This document shows positions 1,620-2,922 of a stretch of 64,000 nt of DNA, in pieces. A program made the translations under genes and the position numbers. The stretch is from assembly GCF_000022545.1 (NCBI RefSeq), contig NC_012883.1:558001-622000 (forward strand), read 5' to 3'. The notes under the pieces were generated by a model. The model had not been told where the DNA came from. It saw only the letters and a list, made by a program, of their open reading frames with translations, and did not search any database. The DNA comes from Thermococcus sibiricus MM 739. Lineage in GTDB: Archaea; Methanobacteriota_B; Thermococci; Thermococcales; Thermococcaceae. Position 1 is the first letter of the stretch, and the number at the start of each line of letters is the position of its first letter.

Positions 1620-2177
1620 GTGAACTATATGATGCACCAGCGTTTTAAAACCAAAGAAGAAAAGTCCAAATTCAAACAAATTTTGGAGGCTATATCAAAG
1701 CTCGGCACTAAGGAACTCCTTGTGTACTGGATGGATCAGGAGGTAAAGGAAGCGGAAATGTACCATAGGCTTTACGCAATAAGTAGTGAGGTTAACTGGG
1801 ATGAGAAAGTTTCAAAGCTTTTCTTGGATATGTACAACGATTGTCTGGAACACGCTGAGACACTGCTAAAGCTTTATCGTACGATGTATCCAGATGAGGA
1901 AGTTATTAAGGTCGATCTCCCTGCCTTAGAGGTAGAGCTGTCCGAGAAACGCTTGAGGGATTTGGTGTATCAAGGGAGACTTCAAGAGATCCTCGAATAC
2001 CTGATGGGTACGGAGAAAATCGCACACGACGTTTATGAATACTTGGCGAAACAAACTACCGATGAAGAAGTAAAGGCGATCCTCAAATGGCTGGCCGAAA
2101 TTGAAAATGGACATTATGAAAGGCTGAGAAGCCTCTACGCGGAGCTTTTCGGAGAGAACCCTGAAGAAGAAAAGTGA
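1620..2177 (+). CDS. Ferritin-like (rubrerythrin-type) diiron-fold protein, copy 1
   Basis: An all-helical protein of 185 residues resembling the rubrerythrin/ferritin-like group (COG1633). Four helices carry paired acidic and histidine residues typical of a diiron site: EVKEAEMYH (about 41-49), CLEHAETL (about 79-86), EKIAHDVYE (about 131-139) and EIENGHYERL (about 161-170). No C-terminal rubredoxin domain is present, so a role in metal binding or oxidative stress is likely but the reaction is unknown. Start GTG at 1620 follows the TATA at 1586 closely; ATG 1629 is an alternative. A related copy lies 0.2 kb downstream. Confidence 0.75.
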   Translation: MNYMMHQRFKTKEEKSKFKQILEAISKLGTKELLVYWMDQEVKEAEMYHRLYAISSEVNWDEKVSKLFLDMYNDCLEHAETLLKLYRTMYPDEEVIKVDLPALEVELSEKRLRDLVYQGRLQEILEYLMGTEKIAHDVYEYLAKQTTDEEVKAILKWLAEIENGHYERLRSLYAELFGENPEEEK

Positions 2178-2183
2178 GAGAGT

Positions 2184-2324
2184 TCACCGGATGATGTGTT
2201 TACCCTTTAGGTAAGCCTCTATTTCCTTAATCTCTTCAGGAGAGAGTTGAAAGACCCTTTTGTTGGCATGAGGGGTCCTCCCAATAAGAGGTTTAAGTTT
2301 CTTGAGCGTATCTTGGAGGATTCG
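2184..2324 (-). pseudogene. Orphan 3' end of a second ksgA gene (46 codons)
   Basis: The reverse strand reads 46 codons ending in TGA at 2184. Its core [18 protein letters not shown] aligns without gaps to the C-terminus of the intact ksgA nearby ([18 protein letters not shown]), and the following EEIKEIEAYL matches [10 protein letters not shown]. It has no start and is preceded by an in-frame stop at 2325-2327. The fragment occupies the same convergent position behind ferritin copy 1 that the intact ksgA occupies behind copy 2, so it is a scar of a duplication or of recombination with a related strain. Confidence 0.85.
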
Positions 2325-2382
2325 TTATGTTTGGAAGCTTAATGTTTTTAAATTTCAAAATCCAATTTTTAAGGGTGATATA

Positions 2383-2922
2383 GTGTCGGAAGTATTTTCC
2401 TCTGTTAGTCGTATTCTCCAAAAGTGTCTCGAAAAGCTCCCACAAATGACCCCTGGAGAATTGCTCTCATACAAGATAAAAGCTGAAGTTGAAGAAGCTG
2501 AGGTATATTATCGGCTGTACGAGCTGAGTAAAGAAATGATCTGGAATGAAGAGATCCCTAAAATTTTCTACCAGCTCTATCAAGAGAACCTTGAACACGC
2601 AGAGAAGCTTCTTGAATTTTACAAAAAGATCTTTCCAGGAAAAGAACCTGTCCCAGTCGATCTTCCGTCCATAAAACCTGTTTTAACTGAAGAAACATTA
2701 AAAGATTTTCTTGAAAAGGCTAGGCTTGAACATCTTATTGAAATTCTGATGAAAAATGAAAAAATGGCTAAAGAAATTTGTGAATATGTCTCCACTACAG
2801 CAGAAAACCCAGAGGTAAGGGAACTTGCTCAATGGTTAGCGAAGAGAGAAGAAGAGCGCTACAACAGACTCAAAATAATTAAAAAATTATCCGCTGCTAA
2901 AAGGGAAGTTTCTAATCAATAA
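2383..2922 (+). CDS. Ferritin-like protein, copy 2, with altered metal ligands
   Basis: This 179-residue paralog of the gene at 1620 matches it along its length (for example NLEHAEKL versus CLEHAETL). The second-half ligand positions differ: [10 protein letters not shown] replaces EKIAHDVYE, and [10 protein letters not shown] replaces EIENGHYERL, so two histidines are lost, and YYRLY replaces YHRLY. A diiron site is therefore doubtful. The start is set at GTG 2383, just after GGTGAT and about 30 bases after the TATA-like TTTTTAAATT at 2346-2355; a longer frame from 2302 would begin upstream of that promoter. Its 3' end overlaps the convergent ksgA by 11 bases. Confidence 0.75.

What the first reader, a model, noticed from the sequence alone, without database searches (positions are those of the whole stretch)
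1620..2922. Tandem ferritin-like genes separated by an orphan ksgA 3' end
Seen: two related ferritin-like genes in direct order, each followed by a convergent ksgA C-terminus; the first is only a 46-codon stump (2184-2324), the second intact. Inference: a unit [ferritin + ksgA end] was duplicated, or an allele from a related Thermococcus recombined in, leaving ksgA DNA as a scar. The stump differs clearly from the local ksgA, favouring an old event or a foreign donor.
Basis: partly seen in the sequence, partly recalled or inferred. Interest (0 to 1): 0.6.

Follow-up and report, generated by a model that had tools for sequence, protein, structure and literature searches.

The report
Ferritin swap scar beside ksgA
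A heat-loving archaeon carries two side-by-side versions of the same iron-protein gene, one native and one from another genus, and a broken end of a neighbouring gene between them marks where the foreign DNA was pasted in; a clear genetic scar rather than a new kind of system.

Summary
In detail: two PF02915 ferritin-like genes (A, B) in tandem, with a decayed ksgA 3' end between them, then B converging on intact ksgA. The ksgA-derived part is 119 nt (window 2187-2305), not all 46 codons. The next ~20 nt look like a relic of the radical-SAM gene's 5' end.

It is not a duplication. A and the stump belong to one Thermococcaceae genus (g4); B and the intact ksgA belong to the window's own genus (g1). 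The locus radSAM-ferritin-ksgA normally holds one ferritin. Four of 94 genomes (two g1, two g4) share A-remnant-B, so the joint formed once, probably by one-sided-homology (illegitimate) recombination, and then crossed genera. In the two g4 carriers ksgA itself is chimeric: body g4, last ~20-45 codons g1. Third-position GC agrees: A is high in g1, B is low in g4.

Across 52 genomes the ferritin's divergence tracks the ksgA C-terminus more than any other ksgA segment, which suggests that ferritin and ksgA end often move together. Other ferritin scars in the same slot (G077, G081, G080) also point to repeated turnover. Which genus made the joint is unresolved. This is a new, well-resolved member of a known kind.

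The parts
3..1583 (-). radical-SAM protein gene (PF04055), left border of the ferritin slot; its 5' half in this genome resembles G074, its 3' half G082 (mosaic)
   Evidence: conserved synteny; nt identities
1561..1619 (.). divergent radSAM / A promoter region; matches genus-g4 intergenic DNA (e.g. CTTTTAAAAACCAATCGCATGTCAAAAGGTATAAA in G018), unlike B-only g1 genomes
   Evidence: by inspection of alignments; promoter role inferred
1620..2177 (+). ferritin-like gene A (PF02915), genus-g4 type, full set of putative diiron ligands; likely start 1629 or 1632
   Evidence: GC3 51% versus 34% in B
2184..2305 (-). stump: last 119 nt plus stop of a genus-g4-type ksgA, originally convergent with A; no start codon
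2305..2325 (-). probable relic of radSAM 5' codons (GIYPRYA) joined to the stump: the illegitimate joint lies at about 2305
   Evidence: best of 1380 offsets in radSAM, in frame; alignments
2326..2382 (.). relic of the radSAM start and divergent promoter (ATGTTTGGAAG..), partly deleted here but retained in G074/G036, followed by the B promoter (TTTTTAAATT) and ribosome-binding site
   Evidence: alignment with G082, where radSAM directly adjoins B; promoter role inferred
2383..2922 (+). ferritin-like gene B (PF02915), genus-g1 type; one putative iron ligand His changed to Arg (A numbering 165)
2912..3733 (-). intact ksgA (rsmA, TIGR00755), genus-g1 type throughout; overlaps B by 11 bp
3736..4377 (-). 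DUF655 gene, right flank, g1 type

Best explanation
This is a scar of allele exchange between two genera of Thermococcaceae at a one-gene 'ferritin slot' between a radical-SAM gene and ksgA. Because the ferritin and ksgA converge and touch or overlap, a moving ferritin carries the ksgA 3' end with it. Once, a DNA fragment recombined with homology at only one end; the other end was joined without homology, fusing the last 119 nt of a g4-type ksgA (behind ferritin A) to the 5' end of a g1-type radSAM gene (ahead of ferritin B). The two ferritin alleles were thereby added side by side instead of replacing one another. The A-stump-B block then crossed between the genera by ordinary homologous recombination, leaving chimeric ksgA genes in g4 carriers. 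Shown: shared joint, separate clades of the parts, ksgA chimerism, decay of the stump. Inferred: the one-sided-homology mechanism, uptake by competence or similar, and the order of events. In this genome A and stump are foreign to the genus, and B and ksgA are native.
For: (1) Synteny radSAM-ferritin-ksgA-DUF655-rpoF-rpl21e with a single ferritin in about 50 relatives; A-remnant-B only in G000, G074 (g1), G036, G052 (g4). (2) Ferritin tree: A in the g4 clade with G018 (98/99) and next G026/G039; B in the g1 clade with G077/G078/G081. (3) ksgA-end tree: the stumps of G000 and G036 are sisters (98/94) inside a g4 set with G018/G026/G039/G041/G029/G058 (100/99), which includes A's nearest relatives. 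(4) ksgA body of G036/G052 is g4 (pair 100/98; all g4 100/100), but its end is g1 (99/98); informative sites switch at nt 670-689 in G036 and 715-766 in G052. (5) The region upstream of B keeps radSAM start and promoter relics as in G082, where radSAM directly adjoins B. (6) GC3: A 51-55% in g1 versus 45-46% in their ksgA; B 42-47% in g4 versus 63-65% in their ksgA. (7) Across 52 genomes ferritin distance correlates with the last 45 residues of KsgA given the rest (partial r 0.40, 0/300 permutations; 0.37 without the four double genomes), more than with other segments. (8) Both ferritins are under purifying selection, dN/dS about 0.1-0.2.
Against: The transfer and the joint are reconstructed, not observed. 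The direction (joint made in g4 or g1) is not resolved. B is less diverged between G000 and G036 (dS 0.41) than A (1.43), so at least one later exchange overlies the first. The radSAM relic is only ~20 nt. G036, G052 and G082 are fragmentary genomes. The permutation test ignores relatedness beyond the ksgA covariate, and ksgA 90-135 also shows some correlation (0.24). Four-genome sharing of A-B could in principle be ancestral, with losses elsewhere.
Confidence: 0.85

Rival explanations
1. Variant I of the best explanation: the joint was made in a g4 genome. A g1 fragment [radSAM 5' end - B - ksgA 3' end] inserted into a g4 ksgA at about codon 230, by homology on the ksgA side and illegitimate joining on the other. 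The displaced g4 ksgA end became the stump, and the block later moved into g1.
For: The stump begins at about ksgA codon 231 and the G036 ksgA switches from g4 to g1 at codons 224-230, as a clean insertion would give. B has low GC3 in g4.
Against: The stump groups with G018/G026/G039/G041 ends, not with the closest relatives of the G036/G052 ksgA body. B in G036 is too similar to G000 (dS 0.41) to date from the first event. G052 has a different switch point.
Confidence: 0.4
2. Variant II of the best explanation: the joint was made in a g1 genome. A g4 fragment [radSAM 5' end - A - ksgA 3' end] entered between radSAM and native B, by homology in radSAM and illegitimate joining on the other side. 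The block later moved into g4, making ksgA chimeric.
For: G082 (g1) shows the presumed empty state, radSAM directly beside B, and its B branches outside the four (89/91). In g1, ksgA is uniformly g1. A has raised GC3 in g1.
Against: G082 could instead have regained the single-gene state by recombination. Its radSAM 5' part differs from G000 while the 3' part is 92% alike, so recombination happened there.
Confidence: 0.4
3. Local tandem duplication of [ferritin + ksgA end] within one lineage, followed by divergence.
For: Direct order and the repeated ksgA end look like a duplication.
Against: A and B fall in different starred clades, each with other species that have a single copy in the same slot. 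The stump groups with g4 ksgA ends, not with the local ksgA. GC3 differs.
Confidence: 0.03
4. The stump is a functional element (small protein, antisense or terminator) kept between two co-selected ferritin genes.
For: In this genome 46 codons are open and one weak terminator-like hairpin lies inside (2198-2216).
Against: No start codon; frameshifted in G036, degraded in G052, mostly deleted in G074. No Rfam match. Hairpins about as many as in shuffles.
Confidence: 0.05
5. Assembly or sequencing artefact.
For: Odd structure; some of the relatives carrying it are metagenome-derived genomes.
Against: The same joint occurs in two single-contig genomes (G000, G074) and in two further genomes of another genus.
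Confidence: 0.01

Closest known systems
Homology-facilitated illegitimate recombination (Acinetobacter, Streptococcus, Pseudomonas stutzeri transformation; cited in PMC5361080, refs 41, 42, 47)
   Same: One end joined in a homologous gene, the other end joined without homology, adding foreign DNA and leaving a partial gene end
   Different: Here inferred from sequence, in an archaeon, and not observed in an experiment; later homologous exchanges overlie it
Vibrio cholerae T6SS effector-immunity arrays with orphan immunity genes and shifted effector 3' ends (PMC5361080)
   Same: Successive insertion of allelic modules at one site that leaves older modules and a gene 3' end behind
   Different: Iron protein and an rRNA methyltransferase end, no toxin or immunity logic; only one retained older gene
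Gene displacement in situ / mosaic operons (concept; papers using these terms found, e.g. PMC1274311, PMC1779527; not read in full)
   Same: An orthologous allele from another lineage enters the same chromosomal place
   Different: The resident allele was kept and a scar was left, so the exchange border can be read
Archaeoferritin PF1196 and its homologue PF1190 (PDB 2FZF) of Pyrococcus furiosus (PMC3401498)
   Same: 2FZF is the best sequence and fold match to A and B (phmmer E 9.8e-10 and 7.9e-5; Foldseek top hit for both)
   Different: Low identity (24-31% in the fold alignments); iron storage not tested for A or B; B has lost one putative ligand

Membership tests
Rubrerythrin/ferritin-like superfamily (PF02915) | Profile match above the curated cut-off | tested here: met
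   A 52.4 bits, B 35.6 bits, cut-off 22.8
Rubrerythrin/ferritin-like superfamily (PF02915) | Four-helix bundle | tested here: met
   AlphaFold2 mean pLDDT 85 and 87, all helical; best PDB match 2FZF, E about 4e-4, TM 0.59-0.81
Diiron ferritin-like proteins | Glu / ExxH / Glu / ExxH ligand set | tested here: inconclusive
   A keeps E46, D75-x-x-H78, E132, E162-x-x-H165; B keeps all but H165 (Arg in G000, G074, G036; His in G052). Metal binding not tested
Archaeoferritin (PF1196-like iron storage) | Iron-induced oligomerisation and storage | not testable with these tools
   Only homology to PF1190/2FZF, itself more than 30% identical to archaeoferritin by PMC3401498
Homology-facilitated illegitimate recombination | One junction in homologous sequence | tested here: inconclusive
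   Homologous switches are seen: chimeric ksgA in G036/G052, and g4-like DNA next to a g1 radSAM in G000/G074; which of them, if any, is the original homologous junction is open because later exchanges overlie it
Homology-facilitated illegitimate recombination | Other junction without homology (microhomology at most) | tested here: met
   ksgA end joined to a radSAM 5' relic at ~2305; the relic is short
Tandem gene duplication | Copies are each other's closest relatives at origin | tested here: not met
   A and B in separate starred clades
ksgA/rsmA (TIGR00755) | Equivalog score above cut-off | tested here: met
   267.5 bits, cut-off 171; the stump alone is not a gene

The most novel reading that the evidence does not exclude
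The ferritin slot of Thermococcaceae is a recurrent exchange site in which ferritin alleles move across genera together with the C-terminal codons of the neighbouring rRNA methyltransferase KsgA, so that a housekeeping protein is repeatedly re-tailed as a by-product of swapping its convergent, overlapping neighbour.
Probability: 0.4. Interest if true: 0.55.

Novelty: new member of a known kind. Interest (0 to 1): 0.4.

Why it matters
It is an unusually readable fossil of inter-genus recombination in hyperthermophilic archaea: junctions, donors, decay and a chimeric housekeeping gene can all be seen. It also offers a testable rule, that a gene converging on and overlapping a core gene drags the core gene's end along when it is exchanged. 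An MLST study of Thermococcus isolates (PMC4585236) reported no recombination in its housekeeping loci; the ksgA chimeras are a counter-example at a core gene, across genera.

Tried and rejected
Local duplication (rejected by trees). Stump as a functional small gene or RNA (no start codon, decay in three relatives, no Rfam hit). Assembly error (four independent genomes). Plasmid origin: no match in the plasmid collection. Resolving the direction from ksgA breakpoints: the G036 breakpoint coincides with the stump start, which first suggested insertion into a g4 ksgA, but dS and the ksgA-end tree show a later exchange there, so I withdrew that inference. Searching all slots for further ksgA-end remnants found none beyond the four carriers.

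Full report
Setting. The window is G000:C1:558001-622000 of a 1,845,800-base genome; the size matches Thermococcus sibiricus MM 739 from my memory, not from a tool. 'g1' and 'g4' are the genus codes given by the genome search.

Observation. Gene A (1620-2177), the minus-strand stump (2184-2324), gene B (2383-2922) and ksgA (2912-3733, minus) are as described. The stump matches ksgA residues 223-272 at 48% identity, E 6.8e-10. At DNA level it aligns with the ksgA ends of G039 and G026 (scores 126 and 120 against at most 40 in 500 shuffles), but only up to about position 2305. The remaining ~20 nt match none of the ksgA ends; their best match along 1380 offsets of radSAM is codons GIYPRYA, in frame, mean 11.1 of 21 matches against a mean of 5.4 and sd 1.2. 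Upstream of B in G074 and G036 follow a radSAM start-like ATG/GTG and the divergent promoter seen in G082, where radSAM directly adjoins B. The joint therefore fuses a ksgA 3' end to a radSAM 5' end. The radSAM relic is short and is the weakest part of this reading.

Relatives. A search of 94 Thermococcaceae genomes and 80 fetched loci shows a conserved order radSAM - ferritin - ksgA - DUF655 - rpoF - rpl21e - pus10, mostly with one ferritin, sometimes none. Only G000, G074 (g1), G036 and G052 (g4) have A and B. The remnant between them is intact as a frame in G000, frameshifted in G036, degraded in G052, and mostly deleted in G074. For G052 the shuffled control is borderline (1 of 500) and for G074 mainly the part next to the joint aligns, so those two rest partly on position.

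Origins. The ferritin tree puts A with G018, G026 and G039 in a g4 clade, and B with G077, G078 and G081 in a g1 clade; this rules out a local duplication. The ksgA-end tree puts the two readable stumps together (98/94) within a g4 set that includes A's nearest relatives (100/99); the g4 carriers G036 and G052 fall with g1 (99/98) although their ksgA bodies are g4 (100/98). Informative sites place the switch at nt 670-689 in G036 and 715-766 in G052. Third-position GC agrees: A 51% in G000 against 46% for its ksgA and 34% for B; B 42-47% in G036/G052 against 63-65% for their ksgA.

Mechanism. The simplest account is one-sided homology: one end recombined in a shared gene, the other was joined illegitimately at the radSAM relic, so two alleles ended up in tandem instead of one replacing the other. 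Homology-facilitated illegitimate recombination is described in transformable bacteria and was invoked for V. cholerae effector-immunity arrays, where older gene 3' ends are likewise shifted and kept (PMC5361080). T. kodakarensis is naturally competent (PMC5988781), so uptake is plausible; this step is inference.

Timing and direction. Synonymous divergence of A among the four is 1.0-1.6. For B it is 0.4-0.8 in most pairs (1.66 in one), and only 0.41 between G000 and G036. B and the ksgA end were therefore probably exchanged again between those lineages after the joint existed. I first read the coincidence of the G036 breakpoint with the stump start as proof of insertion into a g4 ksgA; the dS values and the ksgA-end tree undo that inference, and I leave the direction open. 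G082, with B alone and branching outside the four (89/91), is compatible with the pre-insertion state in g1, but its radSAM is mosaic relative to G000.

Generality. In 52 genomes the ferritin distance correlates with the distance of KsgA residues 228-272 after removing the rest of KsgA (partial r 0.40; 0.37 without the four doubles); other segments give -0.06 to 0.24. The test does not fully correct for shared ancestry. Other scars support repeated turnover: a ferritin 3' end in front of the intact ferritin in G077 and G081, and an internally deleted ferritin in G080.

Proteins. A and B are predicted helical-bundle proteins closest in sequence and fold to PF1190 (2FZF), a homologue of P. furiosus archaeoferritin, which stores iron (PMC3401498). 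A keeps the full putative diiron ligand set. B has Arg in place of the last His in G000, G074 and G036, but His in G052. In G074 it is A that is frameshifted near codon 155. Both genes are under purifying selection (dN/dS about 0.1-0.2). A plausible role is iron oxidation, storage or peroxide defence; this was not tested. In this species A may be the more competent copy; that is inference.

Verdict. Real, well explained, and of a known kind; of value as a readable recombination fossil and as a lead on gene-end co-exchange in archaea.

Noticed in passing
L108 (G077, about 3740-3850 in ksgA-oriented coordinates) and L107 (G081, about 2225-2330): A ~30-codon ferritin 3' end (RLADIERERYNKLKNLKEEYLAVKNNQAAQ*) precedes the intact ferritin: a second, different scar of ferritin turnover in the same slot.
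   Followed up: partly
L110, slot between radSAM and ksgA (G080): Ferritin reduced to its first ~13 and last ~18 codons by an internal deletion.
   Followed up: partly
L103 (G074), pus10 region: The pus10 gene of this g1 genome is g4-like (86-90% to G052; only 54-74% to G000), another inter-genus exchange a few kb away.
   Followed up: no
window 3-1583: radSAM is mosaic: codons ~220-500 are 92% identical (nt) to G082 but 79% to G074; codons ~60-200 are 86% to G074 but 76% to G082.
   Followed up: partly
L103 about 3340-3440 in ksgA-oriented coordinates (G074): Gene A is frameshifted near codon 155, losing the last helix.
   Followed up: partly
window 2383-2922 (gene B), position aligned to A His165: B has lost one putative iron ligand (H165R in A numbering) in G000, G074 and G036; B of G036 also lacks the His at position 78.
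   Followed up: partly
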